Origin: Bryobacterales bacterium
Lineage (GTDB): Bacteria; Acidobacteriota; Terriglobia; Bryobacterales; Bryobacteraceae
Direction: 5' to 3'
NCBI GenBank assembly: GCA_003132905.1
Contig: PKZC01000386.1
Coordinates: 1 to 8,905, forward strand
DNA length: 8,905 nucleotides
Shown here: positions 1 through 8,905 of the stretch, in pieces
How positions within the stretch are numbered: the stretch's first letter is position 1
Layout of the letters: each line of letters begins with the position of its first letter
Notes under the pieces: model-generated
Databases searched by the model: none
Seen by the model: the letters and a program-made list of their open reading frames with translations, nothing else
Told to the model about the DNA's origin: nothing
Position numbers and translations under genes: made by a program

Positions 1-87
1 TTATAACCGGACGCCAGTGACTTTGTCCTGTGCCCAGAGCAGACCCAACAGAAGGAAAAATAGGAAGGGACGAACCACTGAAGTCAT
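1..87 (-). pseudogene. Signal-peptide ORF of 28 codons, possible truncated or frameshifted gene
   Basis: Reading leftwards from an ATG at 87-85, the frame gives MTSVVRPFLFFLLLGLLWAQ, then DKVTGVRL and a TAA at 3-1. The first 20 residues are a good Sec signal peptide: an Arg near the start, a Phe/Leu-rich core and an A-Q cleavage site like those of the other secreted proteins here. Almost nothing follows it. A well-placed copy of the shared promoter module (-10 at 111-106) lies upstream, which argues that the start is real and transcribed. It may be the 5' remnant of a secreted protein broken by a frameshift or deletion, or a genuine tiny exported peptide. The next bases lie outside the window, so a continuation in another frame cannot be tested. 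Confidence 0.4.
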
Positions 88-105: not shown

Positions 106-150
106 AGTTTATAACTTGCGATCTATTGCGCAATGGCTCCAACGAACTAA
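106..150 (-). promoter_or_regulatory. Promoter module copy A (dyad plus -10), minus strand
   Basis: On the minus strand, TTAGTTCGTTGGAGCCATTG (150-131) is followed, 21 nt after CCAT, by TAAACT (111-106) as the -10-like box. A -35-like TTGCGC (133-128) abuts the dyad with a 16-bp spacer. This is the most diverged of four copies: the second half-site is GAGCCA, not GAGCTA. A predicted transcript start near 99 leaves about 12 nt before the ATG at 87. Basis: motif and spacing are seen in the sequence; promoter function is inferred. Confidence 0.6.
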
Positions 151-178
151 ACGGCAATTTCAAGATTCGATTGCCCGG

Positions 179-223
179 CTAGTTCATTGGAGCTATCCGA
201 CGCGCCAAGAATAGAGATAGGAT
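179..223 (+). promoter_or_regulatory. Promoter module copy B (dyad plus -10), upstream of CMD gene 1
   Basis: CTAGTTCATTGGAGCTAT (179-196) is followed after exactly 21 nt by TAGGAT (218-223), a -10-like box. The -35 position (TCCGAC) matches the sigma-70 consensus poorly, which suggests that a bound activator is needed. The -10 overlaps the ATG at 222, so that ATG cannot be the start of a transcript made here. Transcription is predicted from about 230, with translation from the ATG at 252. Confidence 0.65.
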
Positions 224-251
224 GAGAGGGTTTGACTCAATACTGATTAAA

Positions 252-875
252 ATGAATAGAGTATTAGCTCTTCTTGTGTCGACTCTGGTCGCGAATGTGA
301 TGGTTCTCGCGCAGGAGCGCATGCCCCCGATCCCTCCTGAAAAAATGACTGACGCGCAGAAGAAGGCCGCGCAGGATTACAAGGATCTTCGCAACCAGAC
401 GCTGGGAGGCGGGCCCTGGGGCGTGATACTGCGAGTTCCAGATCTCATGGTCCCCTCGGTACAATTTCGCATTCACAACCAAAAGAACAGCGCGCTGACC
501 CCGAAGCTTACCGAATTCGCGATCCTGATTGCGGCCCGCCACTGGACCAACAATTACGAATTCATTCCTCACAGCGCAGCCGCGGCGAAGGATGGCCTGA
601 GTCCGGAGGTTATTGCCGCGATTGTGGACGGGCGGCGTCCCGAGAAAATGTCCGAAGACGAACAGGCTGTCTACGATTTCTGTGACGAACTGCTGCACAA
701 TCAGAGCGTGACCGACGCCACGTATGCGCGGATGCTGGCCAAATTCGGCGAGCCTGGTATCGTTGAGGCGGCGAGCCTGGAAGGCTATTACACCTATCTC
801 TCCATGCTGATGAATGTCGCCCGAACTCCGGTACCGCCCGGCTCCAAACCCCCGCTCACACCCTTTCCGAAGTAA
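252..875 (+). CDS. Secreted carboxymuconolactone decarboxylase-like protein, copy 1
   Basis: A 207-residue protein with a clear signal peptide (residues 1-20, cleaved at VLA-QER), so it is periplasmic or secreted. Residues about 84-130 carry the CMD-type helical signature: TEFAILIAARHWTNNYEF, then a His (107) and an Ala-rich helix leading to DGLSPEVIAAI. The AhpD CxxC pair is absent (only Cys144), so a thiol peroxidase role is unlikely; His97 and His107 are the visible candidate active-site residues. Known family members include gamma-carboxymuconolactone decarboxylase and many uncharacterised proteins; the substrate here is unknown. I chose the ATG at 252 because the in-frame ATG at 222 falls in the -10 box of promoter copy B; no clear Shine-Dalgarno precedes either. 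It is paralogous to the next gene (roughly 40-45% identical by eye from residue 85 on), and both have the same promoter module. Confidence 0.85.
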   Translation: MNRVLALLVSTLVANVMVLAQERMPPIPPEKMTDAQKKAAQDYKDLRNQTLGGGPWGVILRVPDLMVPSVQFRIHNQKNSALTPKLTEFAILIAARHWTNNYEFIPHSAAAAKDGLSPEVIAAIVDGRRPEKMSEDEQAVYDFCDELLHNQSVTDATYARMLAKFGEPGIVEAASLEGYYTYLSMLMNVARTPVPPGSKPPLTPFPK

Positions 876-902
876 CGGATTCAGACAGATAGACGAGTTT
901 GA

Positions 903-947
903 CTAGTTCATCCGAGCTATTGATCGGAGCGCGGCCAGGAATAGAAT
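903..947 (+). promoter_or_regulatory. Promoter module copy C (dyad plus -10), upstream of CMD gene 2
   Basis: CTAGTTCATCCGAGCTATTG (903-922) is followed, 21 nt after CTAT, by TAGAAT (942-947), the second-best -10 of the four copies. The -35-like TTGATC (920-925) has a 16-bp spacer. The predicted transcript starts near 954, leaving about 39 nt before the ATG at 993. The module sits in the 117-bp gap after CMD gene 1, so gene 2 and the three genes after it can be expressed as a separate unit. The gap holds nothing else I recognise. Confidence 0.7.
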
Positions 948-992
948 GTTTGTACGGTGTTGTGTGACTGAGCAAGGCCTGACGGTTTTAAT

Positions 993-1652
993 ATGCAAAT
1001 GAAGCGAGCGTTGCAGGTTGGCCTACTGATTGCCCTAGTGGGCGCCGCGATTGGGCAGGATTCTAAAACGCGTGATCTCAAACTAGCCGGTGATCGCTTC
1101 AAACCGTTGACCTACGAAACCATGACCCCGGAACAACGCAAGATGACCGATGATGTGCTTTCGGGAGACCGGGGGTCGATGGCCGGGCCATACAACGTTT
1201 TGCTGCGCAGCCCCGAGATGGGTGATCTGGCGCAGAAGTTCGGAGCTTACACCCGCTTCCACTCCACGGTTCCGAAAAAACTGAATGAATTCGCAATTAT
1301 TATTGTCGCGCGCCACTGGACCTCGCAGTTCGAATGGGCGCCGCATAAGCGAGCTGCTCTGCAAGCCGGTCTTAACCCCGCGATCGCCGAGGCCGTAGCG
1401 AACGGTAAGCGCCCCGCATCCATGCAACCCGACGAAGAAGCCGTCTACAACTTCTGCAATGAACTGTTGACCACCAAGCAGGTGAGTGATGGCACGTACG
1501 AGGGTGCGGTGAAATTGCTGGGTGAGCGGGGCGTGGTGGATCTTATGGGCGTGATGGGCTATTACCAGCTTGTCTCCATGCTTTTGAATACAGATCGTTA
1601 TCCGATGCCGAACGGGATGCCGCCAGAGTTAAAACCGCTTCCCACGAATTAA
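993..1652 (+). CDS. Secreted carboxymuconolactone decarboxylase-like protein, copy 2
   Basis: A 219-residue exported protein with a signal peptide (residues 1-21, cleaved at AIG-QDS) and the same CMD-like core as copy 1: NEFAIIIVARHWTSQFEW at about 98-115, His118, and AGLNPAIAEA. His108 and His118 match His97 and His107 of copy 1. The only cysteine is in NFCNELL, which copy 1 also has (DFCDELL), so there is no CxxC redox pair. The C-terminal part is also conserved between copies (GYYQLVSMLLN against GYYTYLSMLMN). An alternative start is the ATG at 999 (MKRALQ); the choice is uncertain because neither has a good Shine-Dalgarno. It is the first gene of a tight four-gene unit behind promoter copy C. 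Function is probably the same chemistry on a related substrate; no specific reaction can be assigned. Confidence 0.85.
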   Translation: MQMKRALQVGLLIALVGAAIGQDSKTRDLKLAGDRFKPLTYETMTPEQRKMTDDVLSGDRGSMAGPYNVLLRSPEMGDLAQKFGAYTRFHSTVPKKLNEFAIIIVARHWTSQFEWAPHKRAALQAGLNPAIAEAVANGKRPASMQPDEEAVYNFCNELLTTKQVSDGTYEGAVKLLGERGVVDLMGVMGYYQLVSMLLNTDRYPMPNGMPPELKPLPTN

Positions 1653-1679
1653 CAGCGGAGAGTATCCGCGGAGGTTTTG

Positions 1680-3017
1680 ATGTCAGAACGTAGATTTCTT
1701 CGATTGACTCTCTCGCTGCCGCTGGCCGGGCTCGCGATGTGGTTGATGCCATCGTTTGCCTCAGGCGCAGAGCCGGAGGTGACGTTTTCGAAAGATATCG
1801 CTCCCATTTTCGAGCGATCGTGCCAGAATTGCCACCGGCCCGGCGCGATCGCTCCCATGTCCTTGCTCACCTATAAAGACGCGCGGCCATGGGCCCGCTC
1901 CATCAAGGTGAAGGTAGTGAAGCGGCAGATGCCGCCCTGGCATATCGATCGCAACGTGGGGATTACTAAATTCAAGGATGATCCCTCCCTGAGCGAAGCG
2001 GATGTGGCAGCCATCTCAGCTTGGGTGGATCACGGCGCTCCAGAGGGCAATCCCGCGGATATGCCCCCGCCGCGTGAATTCACGGATCTCGACAAGTGGC
2101 ACATGGGAAAACCCGACGTCGTCGTAACGATGCCAAAGCCTTATATCTTGAAAGCTACAGGCGGCGATGAGTATTACGACGCGGAAGTGGACCCCGGATT
2201 CAAGGAAGACGTTTATGTCTCGGCGCTAGAGACGAAGCCGGATTTGGGCTTCGCGGTTGTGCATCATTGCACCACCAACCTGGTGGAAGATCCGGTGGAC
2301 GACCCGGTGGGGCTGTTCCTCAATGAATACGCCGTCGGCAAGAACGCCGATATTTTCCCCACTAACTCCGGTCGCTTGATTAAGGCGGGCTCCAAGATCC
2401 ATTTCAATGTCCATCTGCATCCTAACGGAAAGGCCACTCCGGTCCAGATTTCGCTGGCCCTCAAGCTTTATCCCAAGGATTTTGTGCCGAAGTATATTGC
2501 GTTCACGCAGCACATGGGCGATTCCGGCGAGTTGGATTTGCCAGCTGGTCAAATTACCCGCAACGACGGTTACTTCCGCTTGCCCCGAGCGGCGGTGATG
2601 ACAGCTTATCAGCCTCATTTTCACCTGCGCGGCAAGGCACAATGCATCGAGGCTATCTATCCCGATGTGCGAGCCGACTCCGCGCGGCCTGGACCGGCGC
2701 GCACCGAAACGCTCAGTTGCGTGAGCGATTACCAGTTCGGCTGGAGCATCACCTACAACTACGCAGAAGAGGTATCGCCGATATTGCCTGCCGGAACGAT
2801 GATTCACGTCACCACCTGGCACGACAACACGGACAATAACATCCATAATCCGAATCCCAAGAACTGGGTGGGCGGCGGCCAACGCACCAACGACGAGATG
2901 AGTTTCGCGTGGGTCAGCCTGTTCTACCTGGATGACTCCGACTATCAGGCGCGTGTCGCGGCCAGAAAGAAAATGGCCTCGATGGATTCCGCCGCCTTCA
3001 AGTTTCCGGCGCAGTAG
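1680..3017 (+). CDS. Secreted c-type cytochrome fused to a PHM-like (copper type II monooxygenase-like) domain
   Basis: A 445-residue exported protein. After a signal peptide (to about residue 29, ASGA-EPE) comes a short heme c domain: FSKDIAPIFERSCQNCHRPG with CxxCH at 48-52, then MPPW (84-87), whose Met is a likely distal heme ligand. From about 140 onwards it resembles the peptidylglycine-monooxygenase fold: HH at 195-196, HFNVHLH at 241-247, PHFHLRG at 312-318, a WHDNTDNN segment, and DEM with Met407. These can be matched to the two copper sites of that family (HH plus H for CuH; HxH plus M for CuM), so two mononuclear coppers are plausible. The reaction and substrate are unknown; similar proteins are common in Acidobacteriota and Planctomycetota. 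I chose ATG 1680 over the adjacent TTG at 1677 because GGAGG (1670-1674) lies 5 nt upstream of it. A small hairpin (GCGGA/TCCGC, 1655-1669) precedes that Shine-Dalgarno. Confidence 0.8.
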   Translation: MSERRFLRLTLSLPLAGLAMWLMPSFASGAEPEVTFSKDIAPIFERSCQNCHRPGAIAPMSLLTYKDARPWARSIKVKVVKRQMPPWHIDRNVGITKFKDDPSLSEADVAAISAWVDHGAPEGNPADMPPPREFTDLDKWHMGKPDVVVTMPKPYILKATGGDEYYDAEVDPGFKEDVYVSALETKPDLGFAVVHHCTTNLVEDPVDDPVGLFLNEYAVGKNADIFPTNSGRLIKAGSKIHFNVHLHPNGKATPVQISLALKLYPKDFVPKYIAFTQHMGDSGELDLPAGQITRNDGYFRLPRAAVMTAYQPHFHLRGKAQCIEAIYPDVRADSARPGPARTETLSCVSDYQFGWSITYNYAEEVSPILPAGTMIHVTTWHDNTDNNIHNPNPKNWVGGGQRTNDEMSFAWVSLFYLDDSDYQARVAARKKMASMDSAAFKFPAQ

Positions 3018-3021
3018 GAGG
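3016..3021 (+). promoter_or_regulatory. Ribosome binding site that fixes a TTG start
   Basis: AGGAGG overlaps the TAG stop (3015-3017) of the copper/heme protein gene and ends 7 nt before TTG at 3029. A perfect Shine-Dalgarno at ideal spacing, followed directly by a signal-peptide sequence, supports the TTG as the true start and suggests coupled translation of the two genes. Confidence 0.8.
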
Positions 3022-3028
3022 CCTCAAA

Positions 3029-3880
3029 TTGCGACCACGCTTCGCCTCCGTCGTCTGGCTGTGGGCCTTCACCTGTCTCATCGCAGCGGCCCAGACGCCG
3101 CCGCCCACTTATATACCCCAGACAAAGTTTTCCAGGGGTCAGGATATAGTTCCGTCTTTCGATGGCTGGATTCGTAATACCGACGGCACGTTCACCATGG
3201 TGTTCGGATACATGAATCGCAACTACGAAGAAGAGCTCGTAATCCCGGCGGGTCCAGACAATCAGCTCTCGCCCGGTGTCGCAGATCAAGGCCAGCCCAC
3301 TTATTTCCTGCCGCGGCGTCACGCCTGGGTTTTTCGCGTGAAGGTGCCCGCGGATTGGGGAAGCAAGGAATTGGTATGGACCATCAACGCGCATGATCGC
3401 ATCGAAAAAGCTTACGGCAGCCTCCAATCGGATGAAGAGATTCTGGAACGGTTGATCATGACTCATGGTGGTCTGAGTCCTGGCCTCGACGATCCCAATC
3501 AGCCTCCTGCCATCCAAATTGCGCCGGTCGAAGCGACGACCGTAGGTAATGCGGTAACGCTCACTGCATCAGTAACCGACGATGGGCTGCCGAAGCTCCG
3601 CGCGCCGAAGGCTTTGCCCGCCTCAGAGCCGGGTAGAGCGCAAACGAACACATCCATCAACCGGCCCAGGCTTGGACTGAATGTCACCTGGATGGAATAC
3701 CGCGGGCCCGGAAAAGCTATTTTCGAAACTACAGACCCGATTCTGGTGGCTAACGGTAAAGCTGTCACTAGAGCAATTTTTTCGGCACCGGGAACCTACG
3801 TATTGCGTGCCACAGCCAATGATGGCGAACTATCCACCACAAGCGACATCACTGTAAATGTCAATCCAAGCCATCCCTAA
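3029..3880 (+). CDS. Secreted protein of unknown function with C-terminal Ig/PKD-like domain
   Basis: A 283-residue protein starting at TTG. Its signal peptide (1-21, cleaved at AAA-QTP) exports it. Residues about 40-130 form a compact domain I do not recognise by name: VPSFDGWIRNTDGTFTMVFG, then NRNYEEELVIPAG, FLPRRHAWVFRVKVP and a W-T-I-N segment, all suggesting beta strands. Residues about 162-278 look like one Ig/PKD-type beta sandwich: VTLTASVTDDGLP near its start and FSAPGTYVLRATANDGE near its end. The Pro/Ala-rich stretch at 190-213 reads as a loop. There is no CxxCH, metal motif or catalytic signature, so a binding or scaffolding role beside the redox enzymes is an inference only. It lies 11 bp after the copper/heme gene and overlaps the next gene by 23 bp, so the three are almost certainly co-transcribed and meant to work together. 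Confidence 0.8.
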   Translation: MRPRFASVVWLWAFTCLIAAAQTPPPTYIPQTKFSRGQDIVPSFDGWIRNTDGTFTMVFGYMNRNYEEELVIPAGPDNQLSPGVADQGQPTYFLPRRHAWVFRVKVPADWGSKELVWTINAHDRIEKAYGSLQSDEEILERLIMTHGGLSPGLDDPNQPPAIQIAPVEATTVGNAVTLTASVTDDGLPKLRAPKALPASEPGRAQTNTSINRPRLGLNVTWMEYRGPGKAIFETTDPILVANGKAVTRAIFSAPGTYVLRATANDGELSTTSDITVNVNPSHP

Positions 3881-5930
3881 GCCACCATCCGTTCTCCTGA
3901 TACTGCCTGCCTTGATTTTGTTCGGTCTCGCGGGGTCTTCTCTCGATGCGCAATCGGGAGCCAAGAACGGCGAATGGCCGACGTACGGCGGCGATCTGGG
4001 CAATACGCGCTACTCACCGCTCGATCAAATCAACGCCGACAATTTCAATAAACTGCAGATTGCCTGGCGATTCAAAACCGACCACCAGGGACCGCGGCCC
4101 GAGTTTCAACTTGAATCCACTCCTCTGATGGTGCATGGGATTCTCTACACGACAGCGGGGTCGCGCCGTGCGGTGCTGGCATTGGACGCCGTCACCGGCG
4201 AGTTGCTCTGGACCCACAGCGAGAATGAAGGTGCGCGCGGTAGCGCTGCGCCTCGCCAACTCTCCGGCCGCGGTTTGGCATATTGGACCGACGGCAAGGA
4301 GGAGCGGATCGTCTACGTGACGCCGGGCTACCGGCTGGTCGCATTGGATGCGAAGACCGGTGTACCGATATCCACTTTCGGCAAGAACGGCTTGGTGGAT
4401 TTGAAGCTGGATGACGACCAGGAGATCGATCTGGTAAACGGCGAAGTTGGATTGCAGTCGGCGCCGGTGGTTGCCAGGAATGTCATCGTAGTTGGCGCCG
4501 CGCATCGCACGGGAGCCAATCCCAAGAGCAAAACGAATGTGAAGGGCTACGTACGCGGATTCGATGTGCGCACCGGAAAGCGCCTCTGGATTTTCCATAC
4601 CATCCCCATGCCCGGAGAGGCGGGAATCGAGACTTGGCTCAATGATTCGTGGTCGTACACAGGGAACACAGGGGTATGGGGGCAGGTTTCCATCGATGAA
4701 GATCTCGGTCTGGTGTATCTGCCCGTCGAGTTGCCGACTGGGGATTATTTCGGTGCGAATCGCCCGGGCAATAATCTATTCGGTGAGACTCTGGTAGCAG
4801 CCGATCTCGAAACCGGCAAAGAGCGCTGGCACTACCAACTGGTGCATCACGGTCTCTGGGATATGGACATCCCTTGCGCTCCGATGTTGACCGACATCAC
4901 GATCGGCGGGCGTACTATAAAGGCCGTTGCACAGCCCACCAAGCAGGCTAATTTGTATGTATTCGATCGAGCGACGGGTCAACCGGTCTGGCCCATTGAG
5001 GAGCGCCCCGTCCCGAAAGGCGAGGTGCCGGGCGAGTGGTATTCGCCCACTCAGCCGTTCCCTACCAAACCGCTGGGCTACGATCGCCAGGGTGTGACAC
5101 TTGATGATCTAATCGATTTTACGCCGGAACTGCACGAGCAAGCTGTGAAGTTAGTCGCGCGCTACAAGCTGGGGCCACTGTTTGAGCCGCCGCTGGTCAG
5201 CAAGCTTGAGGGACCGCTAGCCGTATTGCATCTGCCGTCCACTACGGGTGGCACGAATTGGCCGGGAGGCTCGTACGATCCAGAGAGCCATATCCTCTAC
5301 GTGTTTTCGCAAACCAACATTTCCGCCGTGGGTTTGGTGCCGCCCCCGGATGCCAGCGTTTCGACCATGGCGTATATCGAAGGCACGGCGCTGGCTGGTG
5401 CGCGACGCTCCGGCGGATCGGGCGCTGGTCCGGCCGATGGCCCGCCCAATAGTGAAGCTCCCGCTCGCGCTGCGTCCGGCGAGGGTGGCGGCGGAGGGCT
5501 TACCGTGCAGGGTCTGCCGCTGGTGAAACCGCCTTATGGAAGAATCAGCGCCATTGATCTGAACCGGGGCGAGATCCTGTGGCAGATCGCGCACGGCGAG
5601 ACTCCCGATAACATTCGCAACAATCCGGCTCTCAAAGGTCTCGATATTCCAAGGACTGGCAGGCCGGGCATCATCGGCACATTAGTCACCAAGAGTTTGC
5701 TGGTTGCAGGCGAAGCGGGTTTCTTCACAACGCCCAATGGGCAGCGCGGCGCGATGCTGCGTGCGTACGACAAGGCCACAGGCAAGGAAGTAGGCGCCGT
5801 GTACATGCCCGCGCCGCAAAGCGGTTCTCCAATGACGTACATGGTCAATGGCAGGCAATATCTGGTGGTAGCGATCAGCGGCGGAACTTATTCGGGAGAG
5901 TTGTTGGCGTTCCGGTTGCCGGCTTCATAA
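3858..5930 (+). CDS. PQQ-type quinoprotein dehydrogenase, glucose-dehydrogenase-like, soluble periplasmic
   Basis: A 690-residue exported beta-propeller protein (signal peptide 1-31, cleaved at LDA-QSG). The mature protein opens with WPTYGGDLGNTRYSPLDQIN, the classic first segment of PQQ dehydrogenases, and shows recurrent blade motifs such as ALDAVTGELLW, ALDAKTG, GFDVRTGKRLW and AADLETGKERW. The region HHGLWDMDIP (330-339) matches the catalytic-Asp segment of membrane glucose dehydrogenase, and Lys362 before ANLYVFDRATG matches its PQQ-contacting Lys. It lacks the five N-terminal membrane helices of that enzyme and has no vicinal Cys pair. Residues about 513-547 are a Gly/Ala/Pro-rich insert. 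The known reaction of the family is oxidation of sugars or alcohols with electrons passed to quinone or cytochrome; the substrate here is not evident. The ATG at 3858 lies inside the previous gene without a Shine-Dalgarno, which points to translational coupling. Confidence 0.85.
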   Translation: MSIQAIPKPPSVLLILPALILFGLAGSSLDAQSGAKNGEWPTYGGDLGNTRYSPLDQINADNFNKLQIAWRFKTDHQGPRPEFQLESTPLMVHGILYTTAGSRRAVLALDAVTGELLWTHSENEGARGSAAPRQLSGRGLAYWTDGKEERIVYVTPGYRLVALDAKTGVPISTFGKNGLVDLKLDDDQEIDLVNGEVGLQSAPVVARNVIVVGAAHRTGANPKSKTNVKGYVRGFDVRTGKRLWIFHTIPMPGEAGIETWLNDSWSYTGNTGVWGQVSIDEDLGLVYLPVELPTGDYFGANRPGNNLFGETLVAADLETGKERWHYQLVHHGLWDMDIPCAPMLTDITIGGRTIKAVAQPTKQANLYVFDRATGQPVWPIEERPVPKGEVPGEWYSPTQPFPTKPLGYDRQGVTLDDLIDFTPELHEQAVKLVARYKLGPLFEPPLVSKLEGPLAVLHLPSTTGGTNWPGGSYDPESHILYVFSQTNISAVGLVPPPDASVSTMAYIEGTALAGARRSGGSGAGPADGPPNSEAPARAASGEGGGGGLTVQGLPLVKPPYGRISAIDLNRGEILWQIAHGETPDNIRNNPALKGLDIPRTGRPGIIGTLVTKSLLVAGEAGFFTTPNGQRGAMLRAYDKATGKEVGAVYMPAPQSGSPMTYMVNGRQYLVVAISGGTYSGELLAFRLPAS

Positions 5931-5933
5931 CGC

Positions 5934-6383
5934 TTAGTCGAAGGTGATGAGATCCTTGTGGCTCTCGATCTTCTTGGCGTCGACGCCGGGGATTTTGCTG
6001 AGCGCGTCCCAGTCCTTAATCTTTCCGTGCTCCTTCCGATACTGAACGATGGCCGCAGCCTCGGGCGCGGTTAGCATCAGGCTCGATTGCAGATCCTCGG
6101 CCGCAGCCGTGTTCACATGAATTTTGACCGCTTCAGGGCCGAAGTTCGCTGCCAGATAATCGACGATCGTTTGCAGCTCGTCCGCTGTTCCGGAGGCGCC
6201 GCGGGAGACCATGTCGTTCACGACGCCGGACCATTGCTGTTTGGTGTCGTGCTCGGCGAGCAACAAATCGAGGCCATGACAGCTGGAGCATCGGTCTTCT
6301 ACCAGGTCTTTGCCTTTGCCGTCCGGAAGGTCCTGCGCCTGCGCCACGGCCAGCAAAACGAAGAGAACACCAACTCGCCGCAT
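5934..6383 (-). CDS. Periplasmic cytochrome c with C-terminal helix-hairpin-helix (ComEA-like) domain
   Basis: A 149-residue protein with a signal peptide (1-16, cleaved at AQA-QDL). A small heme c domain follows: CSSCH at 32-36, then W51 and Met58 in the WSGVVNDMVSRG segment, the likely sixth heme ligand. Residues about 89-149 form a ComEA-type helix-hairpin-helix: VNTAAAEDLQ, LTAPEAAAIVQYRKEHG, WDALSKIPGV. HhH domains usually bind DNA backbones; here the domain is exported and attached to a heme, so it may instead mediate protein contact. The ATG (6383-6381) directly follows the TAA of the quinoprotein gene (6386-6384), giving a TAA-ATG junction with no gap. That implies translational coupling and makes this cytochrome the probable electron acceptor of that dehydrogenase. 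No separate Shine-Dalgarno is clear. Confidence 0.85.
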   Translation of the reverse strand: MRRVGVLFVLLAVAQAQDLPDGKGKDLVEDRCSSCHGLDLLLAEHDTKQQWSGVVNDMVSRGASGTADELQTIVDYLAANFGPEAVKIHVNTAAAEDLQSSLMLTAPEAAAIVQYRKEHGKIKDWDALSKIPGVDAKKIESHKDLITFD

Positions 6384-8237
6384 TTACTGATCGATTCCGC
6401 CGGGGGCCGTTGCGCCTGCACCGATCACTGGCGATGGAGCAGGAGGCCCGTTGAGCGGATTGAGCTGGCCGCCTATTTTGAAGCTCCAGACCAGGTCGCC
6501 TCTGGCTTCTTTGAAACCGTCGCGGCTGCCACCAGTTGCGATTGCTACGTACTGCTCGCCGTCGATTTCGTAAGTGGCGGCGGGTGCATCCGCGCCGAAG
6601 CCGGTCTGGAAGCGCCAGAGCTCCTCACCGGTTTTGGAATCGAAGGCGCGGAAGAATCCATCGGTGCCGCCGTGGAACAACAAATCGCCGGCGGTAGCTA
6701 ACAGGCCGCTTCCGAATCCGGCGGGATAAGGAACTTCCTTCTGCCATACCTGCTTGTTGGTTTTTGAATCCAGCGCGGTGATCAAGCCGTCCTCCCGCCC
6801 ACCCAAGACCAAAGCGCGGCCGTGGCTGCTAAACCGCCGCACCGAAACTTCGGTGCCGAAGAACAGATACCCGGAACGCGGATCGTAAGCGCCAGGGGCC
6901 CAATCGCCCGCAGCCGAAGGACGCGCAATTTTGGTGTCGTCCCAAGCGGGTGTGAACATGCACCCCACTTCATAGCCCTTGATCGGCTCGGCACATTGTG
7001 GCGCCGTGGGATCGCCAATGGGAACCGGCTGTGTCGCTGCGGTCTTTTGCCGGGGCTCCTGCGGGACTGGTTTCTCTTCCACTCCGACCAGCGGCTTTCC
7101 CGTCACGCGATCCAGAATGTAGACCCACCCTTGTTTGGAGTGCGCGGCCAACGCCTTACGCGTTTCAGCGCCGTATGTCTGGTCGAATAGAATTATCGGC
7201 GTGGGCATGTCGAAATCCCACATATCGTGATGGACGGTCTGGTAATGCCAGCGATACTTGCCGGTAGCCGCCTCCAGCGCCACTACGGAACTGGTGAACA
7301 AGTTGTCGCCTCCGCGCGTGGATCCGTTATAATCCGGCCAAGGATTGCCGGTAGCGACGTAGAGCAAACCGAGATCGGCATCCACGGCCGGCTGCACCCA
7401 CATTGCGCCGCCGCCTGTCTTCCAAGAATCGCCTTCCCAGGTGTCGTTGCCAAATTCGCCGGGACCAGGCGTGGCATACCAGCGCCAAACTTCCTTGCCG
7501 GTTTTCGCGTCGTGCGCCGTCAAGCGCCCGCGCAACCCACTATCTCCACCCGAGATGCTCATGTAGACGAGGCCCTTGTAATAGAGTGGCGGCGCGGTGA
7601 TATATTTGCGGAAATTCTTGGGAACGTCCTCGCCGAGCTCGTGCTTCCAGAGCAGCTTCCCGGTTTTTTGATCAAGAGCGATTAGGTAAGTAACAGGCTC
7701 CGGCCGCGGCGTACGGCCTGCCGGGCGAGCCTCTCCTGCCAGGCGAGCCTCTGTGGGGTCACCGGATTCAGTAGGCGCAGGTGCAGGCGATGGAGGCGGC
7801 TTCCGGATATCCGCCGTGCTGCTGAAGACCATACCTTCACCCAGCGCTATACCGCGCTTGGCTTTATTGTCCGGAGTTTTCGGATCGGCATCGGTTTGAT
7901 ATTTCCAAATAATGTTGCCCGTTTTAGCGTCGATGGCGAAAACGTCCTGTTGTCCGGTCGGCAGGTACATGATGCCGTCCTTAACGACGGGTGTTGCCTG
8001 TTGCGAGTACGGTGCTCCGAACCCCGAATTGAGACGCAGCATCCAGGCGCCCTTTAGTTGTTTTACGTTCGACGTGTTGATCTTCGCGAGCGTCGAATAG
8101 CGTGTGTTTCCCCAATCCCCGCCGACCAGCGGCCACTCGGCGCCGGCTGTTTTTCGAAAATCGGGCGCTGTCTGCGCGGACAGTATTCGAACCAGCAACA
8201 GACCGAGGAGTGGGATCGATCTAAATGAAGAGTGCAT
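6384..8237 (-). CDS. PQQ-type quinoprotein, alcohol-dehydrogenase-like
   Basis: A 617-residue exported propeller (signal peptide 1-21, cleaved at LSA-QTA). It has WPLVGGDWGNTRYSTLAKIN at about 35-54 and blade motifs AIDAKTGNIIW, ALDQKTGKLLW, AHDAKTGKEVW, ALDSKTNKQVW and AFDSKTGEELW. GNPWPDYN (297-304), GGDNLFTSSVVAL and HHDMWDFD (336-343) match the Ca/PQQ and catalytic-Asp regions of type I alcohol dehydrogenases. Two features differ: no vicinal Cys-Cys, and GGDSGLRG (230-237), where methanol dehydrogenase has a Glu that I align with Asp232. Cys415 and Cys426 could form a loop disulfide. NCBI has a family named 'acido-empty-quinoprotein' for acidobacterial relatives in genomes without PQQ synthesis; membership is my recollection, untested. 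I chose ATG 8237: the longer TTG start at 8252 overlaps the -10 of promoter copy D. The 5' UTR would be only about 8 nt, without a Shine-Dalgarno. Confidence 0.85.
   Translation of the reverse strand: MHSSFRSIPLLGLLLVRILSAQTAPDFRKTAGAEWPLVGGDWGNTRYSTLAKINTSNVKQLKGAWMLRLNSGFGAPYSQQATPVVKDGIMYLPTGQQDVFAIDAKTGNIIWKYQTDADPKTPDNKAKRGIALGEGMVFSSTADIRKPPPSPAPAPTESGDPTEARLAGEARPAGRTPRPEPVTYLIALDQKTGKLLWKHELGEDVPKNFRKYITAPPLYYKGLVYMSISGGDSGLRGRLTAHDAKTGKEVWRWYATPGPGEFGNDTWEGDSWKTGGGAMWVQPAVDADLGLLYVATGNPWPDYNGSTRGGDNLFTSSVVALEAATGKYRWHYQTVHHDMWDFDMPTPIILFDQTYGAETRKALAAHSKQGWVYILDRVTGKPLVGVEEKPVPQEPRQKTAATQPVPIGDPTAPQCAEPIKGYEVGCMFTPAWDDTKIARPSAAGDWAPGAYDPRSGYLFFGTEVSVRRFSSHGRALVLGGREDGLITALDSKTNKQVWQKEVPYPAGFGSGLLATAGDLLFHGGTDGFFRAFDSKTGEELWRFQTGFGADAPAATYEIDGEQYVAIATGGSRDGFKEARGDLVWSFKIGGQLNPLNGPPAPSPVIGAGATAPGGIDQ
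7717..7752. repeat. Two tandem 18-bp repeats inside the quinoprotein gene
   Basis: CCTGCCGGGCGAGCCTCT (7717-7734) is followed directly by CCTGCCAGGCGAGCCTCT (7735-7752), with one mismatch. On the coding (minus) strand the two units encode EARLAGEARPAG in frame. They lie in a Pro/Ala-rich stretch (residues about 146-181) that interrupts the propeller between blades, and so look like an in-frame insertion tolerated in a surface loop. Confidence 0.85.
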
Positions 8238-8251
8238 GGAGTTAACGCTCA

Positions 8252-8296
8252 ATTTTATCGCCGGATTTCACTGGATCAATAGCTCCGATGAACTAG
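8252..8296 (-). promoter_or_regulatory. Promoter module copy D (dyad plus -10), upstream of the minus-strand quinoprotein
   Basis: On the minus strand CTAGTTCATCGGAGCTATTG (8296-8277) is followed, 21 nt after CTAT, by TAAAAT (8257-8252), the best -10 of the four copies. The -35-like TTGATC (8279-8274) has a 16-bp spacer. The 16-bp dyad TAGTTC-ATCG-GAGCTA has one mismatch between half-sites. The predicted transcript starts near 8245, so the dyad centre is about -42. The first CTAG of the module is shared with the 25-bp palindrome next to it. Confidence 0.7.
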
Positions 8297-8317
8297 GGCG
8301 TGTTGAACACGCCCTAG
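8293..8317 (-). terminator. Perfect 25-bp palindrome, probable terminator of the response-regulator gene
   Basis: The arms CTAGGGCGTGTT (8293-8304) and AACACGCCCTAG (8306-8317) pair perfectly over 12 bp around one central base, or as a 10-bp stem with a 5-nt loop. It starts 5 bp past the TGA of the response-regulator gene, the usual place for a terminator. No U-rich tract follows on either strand, so it is not a textbook intrinsic terminator. It could also act as a protein-binding site or an mRNA 3' stabiliser. Confidence 0.6.
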
Positions 8318-8322
8318 TGTAG

Positions 8323-8905
8323 TCAACGCAGGTGAACGATTCCGCGTTGAATCGCGGTGGTGGCGGCTTGCGTCCGGTCGTCCACCGACAGTTTGCTGAG
8401 AATGCTGCGCACGTGATTCTTGACGGTAAATTCGGCGATGCCGAGGGCAGTGGCAATCTGCCGGTTGCTCAATCCTGGCACAATCAGCTCGAGCACCTCC
8501 AGCTCTCGAACGCTTAACACCGGCCCGTGCGGATAGTTCTCAAGCATCGCGGCAATCGGGCCGCCAAAGTATTTCGCTCCCCGATAGACTTTGCGAATGG
8601 CCTTGATGAGCTCATCGTCCAGAACGTCTTTGGTGAGGTAGCCTCGCACTCCCGCCTGGCAAGCGCGGTAGACGTCTTCCTGGCCATCGTACGTGCTGAG
8701 CGCCAGCAAGTGCGCGCTCGGAAATTCGCTGCGAATTTGCGTGACGGCCTCAAATCCGTTCATCACCGGCATCCGCATGTCGATGAGTGCCACGTCGGGA
8801 CGCTTCTCGCGATACAGCGCTACCGCTTGCTGGCCGTTTGCGGCTTCGGCCACGGTAGCCATGTCTGGCTGAGCGTTGACGATGGCGGCGATGCCAACTC
8901 TGGTT
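8323..8905 (-). CDS. NarL/FixJ-family response regulator, 5' end cut by window edge
   Basis: A two-component response regulator: a receiver domain phosphorylated by a cognate kinase, then a LuxR-type helix-turn-helix that binds DNA. The open frame runs to the right edge. The 14 codons before the ATG at 8862 read TRVGIAAIVNAQPD, which fits the conserved first helix of receivers, so that ATG is internal and about 15-20 residues, including the acidic pocket, lie outside the window. The phosphoacceptor is the Asp of ALIDMRMPVMNG; the conserved Thr/Ser (LALST) and Lys (YLTKD) are visible. The C-terminus, LSVRELEVLELIVPGLSNRQ followed by IATALGIAEFTVKNHVRSIL, is a complete LuxR HTH. It points the same way as the quinoprotein gene downstream, separated by the palindrome and promoter copy D, so it could control the neighbouring genes, but that is inference. 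No kinase gene is in view. Confidence 0.9.
   Translation of the reverse strand, partial: TRVGIAAIVNAQPDMATVAEAANGQQAVALYREKRPDVALIDMRMPVMNGFEAVTQIRSEFPSAHLLALSTYDGQEDVYRACQAGVRGYLTKDVLDDELIKAIRKVYRGAKYFGGPIAAMLENYPHGPVLSVRELEVLELIVPGLSNRQIATALGIAEFTVKNHVRSILSKLSVDDRTQAATTAIQRGIVHLR

What the first reader, a model, noticed from the sequence alone, without database searches (positions are those of the whole stretch)
106..8296. One promoter module repeated four times, with exact spacing, ties two redox gene sets into an apparent regulon
Four sites (150-106 minus, 179-223 plus, 903-947 plus, 8296-8252 minus) share the consensus YTAGTTCRTYSGAGCYATTG, although copy B diverges in the last three bases. 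In all four a -10-like hexamer begins exactly 21 nt after the conserved CTAT/CCAT: TAAACT, TAGGAT, TAGAAT and TAAAAT. The intervening sequence is not conserved, so this is not recent DNA duplication but selected spacing. Every copy precedes an exported protein, and no copy was found inside a gene. The conserved block is too specific for a core promoter alone and suggests a dedicated regulator.
Basis: seen in the sequence. Interest (0 to 1): 0.85.

Follow-up and report, generated by a model that had tools for sequence, protein, structure and literature searches.

The report
Shared promoter box of redox operons
Four promoters in this acidobacterial DNA carry the same 17-base control box at one fixed distance from the start signal, most likely the docking site of a neighbouring response regulator that switches on secreted redox genes; it is an ordinary kind of control, but the exact box was not found in any related genome searched.

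Summary
Four intergenic sites match TAGTTCRTYSGAGCYAT exactly; the window has no other match at up to 4 mismatches. A set this tight appeared in 0 of 215 shuffles. TAnnnT starts 21 nt after the box in 4 of 4 sites; no other offset has it in 2 or more. I read the sites as promoters with a transcription-factor box centred near -42.5. The wider claim, a Bryobacterales regulon, is not supported: 0 exact matches in 541 relatives, one-mismatch matches near control counts (50 against 43 in the order, 76 against 52 in the class), nothing within 3 mismatches at 10 orthologous loci. The window's own genome is not held, so the regulon cannot be sized. Best candidate: the NarL/LuxR-type response regulator whose gene ends just upstream of box D. 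The box allows a NarL-like 7-2-7 reading, but the dyad is weak (10% of column shuffles match it). Its recognition helix carries F and R where 105 of 120 homologues carry H and K, which could fit a lineage-specific box. Nearest functional parallel: PedR2/ExaE and AgmR controlling PQQ alcohol dehydrogenases in Pseudomonas.

The parts
133..149 (-). Box A, TAGTTCGTTGGAGCCAT
   Evidence: exact match; in the 7-2-7 reading half-sites 4 of 7 alike
106..111 (-). -10-like TAAACT of promoter A
   Evidence: offset 21 after the box; presumed start near 99, ATG at 87 (inference)
1..87 (-). Reading frame behind promoter A: 28 codons, signal-peptide-like, in-frame stop at the window edge
   Evidence: read directly from the sequence; no predictor run
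180..196 (+). Box B, TAGTTCATTGGAGCTAT
   Evidence: exact match
218..223 (+). -10-like TAGGAT of promoter B; no -35-like hexamer (TCCGAC at 16 nt)
   Evidence: sequence
252..875 (+). CMD1, exported protein, relatives called 4-carboxymuconolactone decarboxylase by JGI; start probably at 252, not 222
   Evidence: ORF; many homologues are 207-208 aa with 95% query cover, though the nearest, P0001, is listed with 217; the ATG at 222 overlaps the -10; no Pfam family
904..920 (+). Box C, TAGTTCATCCGAGCTAT
   Evidence: exact match
942..947 (+). -10-like TAGAAT of promoter C, with TTGATC 16 nt upstream
993..1652 (+). CMD2, exported paralogue of CMD1; first gene of the presumed operon CMD2-cyt-Ig-PQQ1
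   Evidence: ORF; both CMD1 and CMD2 hit the same genes in relatives, CMD2 at about 40%
1677..3017 (+). Large protein with a weak cytochrome c match
   Evidence: PF13442 E 4e-4, below its cut-off; relatives at 76-86%
3029..3880 (+). 283-aa protein with no family match (called Ig here as a label only)
   Evidence: follows the cyt gene in L001-L004 too
3858..5930 (+). PQQ1, PQQ-type dehydrogenase propeller
   Evidence: PF01011 E 1e-186
8279..8295 (-). Box D, TAGTTCATCGGAGCTAT
   Evidence: exact match; within 1 mismatch of B and of C
8252..8257 (-). -10-like TAAAAT of promoter D, with TTGATC 16 nt upstream
6384..8237 (-). PQQ2, PQQ-type dehydrogenase propeller (start ATG at 8237 by inspection)
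   Evidence: PF01011 E 8e-107
5934..6383 (-). Small protein with a C-terminal HHH_3 domain and a CxxCH motif, directly behind PQQ2
   Evidence: PF12836; motif by eye
8323..8904 (-). NarL/LuxR-type response regulator, 5' end cut by the window; candidate regulator of the box
   Evidence: PF00072 and PF00196; 92% to P0121; helix AEFTVKNHVR
8292..8318 (.). Perfect 13-bp inverted repeat with 1 nt between arms, between the regulator's stop and promoter D; overlaps the first bases of box D
   Evidence: not called as a terminator (no T run)

Best explanation
The four sites are activator-dependent promoters of the ordinary sigma-70 kind. One dedicated transcription factor binds the 17-base box, which abuts the -35 region (centre about 42-43 nt before the start of transcription), and recruits RNA polymerase to a -10 lying two helical turns downstream. 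It so drives four units together: the gene behind A, CMD1, CMD2-cyt-Ig-PQQ1, and PQQ2-cytochrome. Most likely the factor is the NarL/LuxR-type response regulator encoded just upstream of promoter D, binding as a dimer to two 7-base half-sites (TAGTTCR-TY-SGAGCTA), under a sensor kinase of the propeller type such as lies next to two of its orthologues. Shown: the boxes, their spacing to the -10, their place before genes, and the response-regulator gene. Inferred: promoter activity, activation rather than repression, the identity of the regulator, the dimer reading and the signal.
For: Four exact boxes and tight B, C, D triple against 0 of 215 shuffles. -10 at offset 21 in 4 of 4, no rival offset. 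Presumed starts lie 8-39 nt before the ATG of each unit. Weak or absent -35: TTGATC in C and D, none in B, as expected when an activator is needed. Adjacent response regulator with F and R in the recognition helix. Among the 120 best homologues (of 7538 found), 105 have H and K there, 4 D and K, 5 Y and K, and 6 F or Y with R. Of 20 orthologues looked at in the order, which has no exact box, 20 carry K, 19 H and 1 Y. NarL activates from a 7-2-7 site abutting the -35 at ogt (centre -44.5) and just upstream of it at yeaR (PMC7419079, passages). Orthologues of the regulator lie behind a gene for a Reg_prop/Y_Y_Y/HisKA_3 kinase in L117 and L121.
Against: Nothing ties the regulator to the box except nearness and a plausible geometry. 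The dyad is weak (513 of 5000 column shuffles reach it). The exact box is absent from 541 related genomes, although 133 of 257 genomes of the order hold relatives of the regulator. Ten regions next to its orthologues in 6 genomes gave no dyad of 5 of 7 or better with a -10 at 19-23 nt (box A, with 4 of 7, would itself fail that rule). The regulator's own promoter lies outside the window. A repressor site at the same place is not excluded.
Confidence: 0.5

Rival explanations
1. The box is bound by a different factor encoded outside the window, activator or repressor; the response-regulator gene is a neighbour by accident.
For: Dyad weak; exact box absent in relatives that hold orthologues of the regulator. 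A site overlapping the upstream edge of the -35 could also serve a repressor.
Against: The regulator's changed helix and its place beside promoter D; promoter B has no -35, which speaks for activation.
Confidence: 0.3
2. The box is a common upstream promoter element of this one lineage, present before many unrelated genes, not a dedicated redox regulon. All four promoters that can be seen in the window carry it.
For: 4 of 4 presumed transcription units with a visible start have it; no unit without it is available for comparison.
Against: No exact copy in 541 relatives, which would be odd for a core element; 13 invariant bases of 17 is more than core elements show.
Confidence: 0.1
3. The box plus -10 is the recognition site of an alternative sigma factor.
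For: Fixed spacing of box and -10.
Against: The block is 17-20 bases, longer than any -35 element I know of (recalled), and the -10s are sigma-70-like (TAAAAT, TAGAAT); two of four also carry TTGATC at 16 nt.
Confidence: 0.05
4. The four copies are leftovers of DNA duplication (A and B form an inverted repeat; CMD1 and CMD2 are paralogues) without shared function.
For: A and B arms of 22 nt, 82% complementary; CMD1 and CMD2 related.
Against: Between box and -10 only scattered columns agree while both ends are conserved; D precedes an unrelated gene yet differs from B and from C at one base of 17.
Confidence: 0.05

Closest known systems
NarL 7-2-7 sites at E. coli yeaR and ogt
   Same: Response regulator of the same broad family; inverted pair of 7-base half-sites with 2 bases between, next to the -35; activation from a centre at -44.5 at ogt (PMC7419079, passages; 7-2-7 preference also PMC4549865, passages)
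   Different: Half-sites read TAGTTCR and TAGCTCS here, against TACCCCT in the engineered narG site quoted in PMC4549865; dyad only 4-5 of 7; binding not shown
PedS2/PedR2 (ExaD/ExaE) and AgmR control of PQQ alcohol dehydrogenases in Pseudomonas
   Same: LuxR-type regulators encoded in the cluster that activate PQQ-dehydrogenase genes; PedR2 also takes part in repressing one of them (PMC6115532 and PMC12997753, passages)
   Different: Other phylum; both dehydrogenases here score below the NCBIfam cut-offs of the alcohol-dehydrogenase subfamily; no DNA motif was found in the passages that I saw, so the boxes could not be compared
Reg_prop sensor kinase with NarL-type regulator
   Same: Orthologues of the window's regulator directly follow such a kinase gene in L117 and L121
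   Different: The kinase would lie outside the window and was not seen here; near the orthologue in L121 lies an RND-type transporter gene, not a PQQ dehydrogenase

Membership tests
Activator-dependent sigma-70 promoter (class-II-like) | Activator box overlapping or abutting the -35, centre near -41 to -45 | tested here: met
   Centre to first -10 base 30.5 nt in 4 of 4; -42.5 if that base is -12, an assumption
Activator-dependent sigma-70 promoter (class-II-like) | Poor -35 | tested here: met
   TTGATC in C and D, TTGCGC in A, none in B
Activator-dependent sigma-70 promoter (class-II-like) | Transcription starts at the expected base and depends on the factor | not testable with these tools
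   needs transcript data
NarL-type 7-2-7 operator | Two inverted 7-base half-sites, 2 bases between | tested here: inconclusive
   Best axis is the 7-2-7 one, half-sites 4, 5, 5, 5 of 7 alike, but 513 of 5000 column shuffles reach this
NarL-type 7-2-7 operator | Bound by a NarL/LuxR-family regulator | not testable with these tools
   a candidate gene lies next to box D
NarL/LuxR-family response regulator (protein) | Receiver domain plus GerE-type DNA-binding domain | tested here: met
   PF00072 E 6e-22, PF00196 E 1e-18
Named functional class of such regulators (NarL, MctR, MadR, UhpA and others) | NCBIfam score above the curated cut-off | tested here: not met
   the 25 best of 82 matched models are shown and all 25 score below their cut-offs, for example MctR 131 against 300; the window's copy lacks its 5' end
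Conserved regulon of Bryobacterales | Box present before genes in related genomes | tested here: not met
   0 exact in 541 genomes; 10 orthologous loci without a match at up to 3 mismatches

The most novel reading that the evidence does not exclude
A branch of this widespread acidobacterial response regulator has changed its DNA-reading residues (H to F, K to R) and, with them, acquired a new operator that was placed at four promoters of secreted redox genes in this lineage alone: a natural case of a regulator and its sites being rewired together, with the widespread H/K form as the unchanged control.
Probability: 0.2. Interest if true: 0.55.

Novelty: new member of a known kind. Interest (0 to 1): 0.36.

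Why it matters
To my knowledge few regulons are worked out in Acidobacteriota, whose genomes are rich in secreted PQQ-type dehydrogenases of unknown trigger (recalled, not tested here). A short, exact box with a neighbouring candidate regulator gives a test that can be run with one protein and four DNA fragments. If the regulator is the right one, its two helix changes against a large set of unchanged relatives would let one ask directly how a regulator and its sites change together.

Tried and rejected
Regulon shared across the order or class: not borne out in what is held. Footprints at orthologous genes: 10 CMD1 loci, 4 of them with PQQ2 within 1 kb, no box at up to 3 mismatches (the upstream letters were printed and no shared box was seen by eye). 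Box-like dyads with a -10 beside the regulator's orthologues: none in the 10 regions looked at, by a rule that box A would fail. Mobile-element origin: no match of a strict 20-base form (which only boxes C and D fit) in viral contigs and no near match of the window in the plasmid collection; the phage collection and distant matches were not searched. One-mismatch match L023 (intergenic, TAnnnT at offset 21) was treated as chance: 1 of 51, where 0.3 to 0.6 is expected from the TAnnnT rates. Literature: in the listings seen (3 papers, 10 of 69, 10 of 65, a letter-string search) no title or abstract start spoke of an acidobacterial regulon with this box; most of the papers listed are unrelated.
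Full report
WHAT IS THERE. The window (8905 bases, 57.7% G+C) holds eight main reading frames, chosen from the 24 listed. Plus strand: CMD1 and CMD2, two exported proteins (relatives of CMD1 are called 4-carboxymuconolactone decarboxylase by JGI; no Pfam or NCBIfam family for either), a 446-aa protein with a weak cytochrome c match, a 283-aa protein without family, and the PQQ-type propeller PQQ1. Minus strand: a small protein with CxxCH and HHH_3, the PQQ-type propeller PQQ2, and a NarL/LuxR-type response regulator cut by the window's end. Frames overlap or lie within 30 bases inside CMD2-cyt-Ig-PQQ1 and PQQ2-cytochrome, so I take these as operons (inference).

THE BOXES. TAGTTCRTYSGAGCYAT has four exact matches and no others up to 4 mismatches. 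Because the pattern was made from the sites, I used a pattern-free statistic: one 17-mer with two others within 1 mismatch and a third within 3. The window has it (box D as seed), 0 of 215 dinucleotide shuffles do; the looser set of three others within 3 mismatches is in 26 of 215 shuffles. So B, C and D are beyond chance by themselves and A joins them at 3 mismatches from D. Of the 17 positions 13 are invariant.

THE -10. TAnnnT begins 21 nt after the box in 4 of 4; no other offset from 0 to 69 has it in 2 or more. At the non-coding rate of 0.012 per base, four in register somewhere within 30 offsets would be a matter of less than one in a million (my arithmetic). Between the two only scattered columns agree. 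Taking the first base of the hexamer as -12 (an assumption), starts fall near 99 (A), 230 (B), 954 (C) and 8245 (D), that is 12, 22, 39 and 8 nt before the ATGs at 87, 252, 993 and 8237. CMD1 thus probably begins at 252, not at the 222 of the longest frame: the ATG at 222 overlaps the -10, and many close relatives are 207-208 aa long, though the nearest is listed with 217. The -35 is TTGATC in C and D, TTGCGC in A and absent in B.

WHAT IT MEANS. A long box ending at the -35 and centred near -42.5, with poor -35s, is the layout of an activator that touches polymerase from just upstream of the -35. E. coli NarL does this from one 7-2-7 site at yeaR and from -44.5 at ogt (PMC7419079, passages). 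The box can be read as 7-2-7 (TAGTTCR-TY-SGAGCTA), and of all symmetry axes that one is best, but 513 of 5000 column shuffles do as well; the dyad is a lead, not a result. A repressor is not excluded.

THE CANDIDATE REGULATOR. The response regulator (PF00072, PF00196) ends 27 bases before box D on the same strand. The 25 NCBIfam models shown for it (of 82 matched) all score below their cut-offs. Relatives at E up to 1e-40 are in 133 of 257 genomes of the order (only 12 candidates per genome were scored). In the 20 of these whose loci were returned, the two helix positions where the window has F and R hold H and K in 19 and Y and K in 1 (L084). In the 120 best homologues listed (of 7538 found) they hold H and K in 105, D and K in 4, Y and K in 5, and F or Y with R in 6, the last including the two at 91-92% identity. 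In L117 and L121 the orthologue follows a Reg_prop/Y_Y_Y/HisKA_3 kinase gene (the like-placed genes of the other four loci were not scanned); whether this is so in the window's organism is unknown. That these two helix positions face DNA bases is recalled from NarL work and was not shown by a call; two searches gave no residue-level passage. In Pseudomonas, LuxR-type regulators encoded in the cluster control PQQ alcohol dehydrogenases: PedR2/ExaE, which activates pedE and is involved in repressing pedH, and AgmR (PMC6115532, PMC12997753, passages).

RESULTS AGAINST A WIDER REGULON. No own genome is held. In 257 genomes of the order there are 50 one-mismatch matches in 43 genomes and no exact one, against 43 for the reversed control by my count, at most three per genome. 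In 399 of the class, which bring 284 new genomes, there are 76 one-mismatch matches in 68 genomes, none exact, at most two per genome, against 52 for the control by my count; this small excess is no sign of a regulon in any one genome, and several of the strings recur in like coding frames (GAGTTCATTGGAGCCAT in five genomes). Surroundings were returned for 51 of the 104 distinct one-mismatch matches: 43 lie in stop-to-stop frames of 150 codons or more, 8 do not, and 1 of the 51 (L023, intergenic) has TAnnnT at offset 21. The ten closest CMD1 loci, 59-69% identical by tblastn (60-71% in the table), have no match at up to 3 mismatches. In four of them (L066, L068, L070, L072) PQQ2 lies within 1 kb of CMD1, so these two genes, at opposite ends of the window's boxed stretch, are old neighbours.

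VERDICT. Observation confirmed; promoter reading well supported by sequence alone; regulon reading limited to four promoters of one lineage; regulator a reasoned guess. A new member of a known kind, of moderate interest, with a clear bench test.

Noticed in passing
window 1-87, minus: The frame behind promoter A has a signal-peptide-like start and an in-frame stop after 28 codons, exactly at the window's first bases; a true short peptide, a broken gene or an error near a contig end cannot be told apart.
   Followed up: no
window 8292-8318: Perfect 13-bp inverted repeat with a 1-nt centre lies between the regulator's stop codon and promoter D and shares bases with box D; it has no T run, so it is no standard terminator.
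   Followed up: partly
window 133-154 and 175-196: Promoters A and B stand back to back and their boxes with flanks form an inverted repeat of 22-nt arms, 82% complementary.
   Followed up: partly
L066, L068, L070, L072: In four relatives CMD1 and PQQ2 orthologues lie within 1 kb of each other, while in the window they lie at the two ends of the boxed stretch with CMD2-cyt-Ig-PQQ1 between them.
   Followed up: partly
window 252-875 and 993-1652: Both exported CMD-like proteins match no Pfam or NCBIfam model, although JGI names relatives of CMD1 4-carboxymuconolactone decarboxylase and one of the 120 listed (P0083) carries PF02627; an exported branch of that fold may be missed by the models.
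   Followed up: no
L117, L121: The widespread H/K form of the regulator sits behind a large Reg_prop sensor kinase gene, and in L121 a gene for an RND-type (ACR_tran) transporter lies close by.
   Followed up: partly
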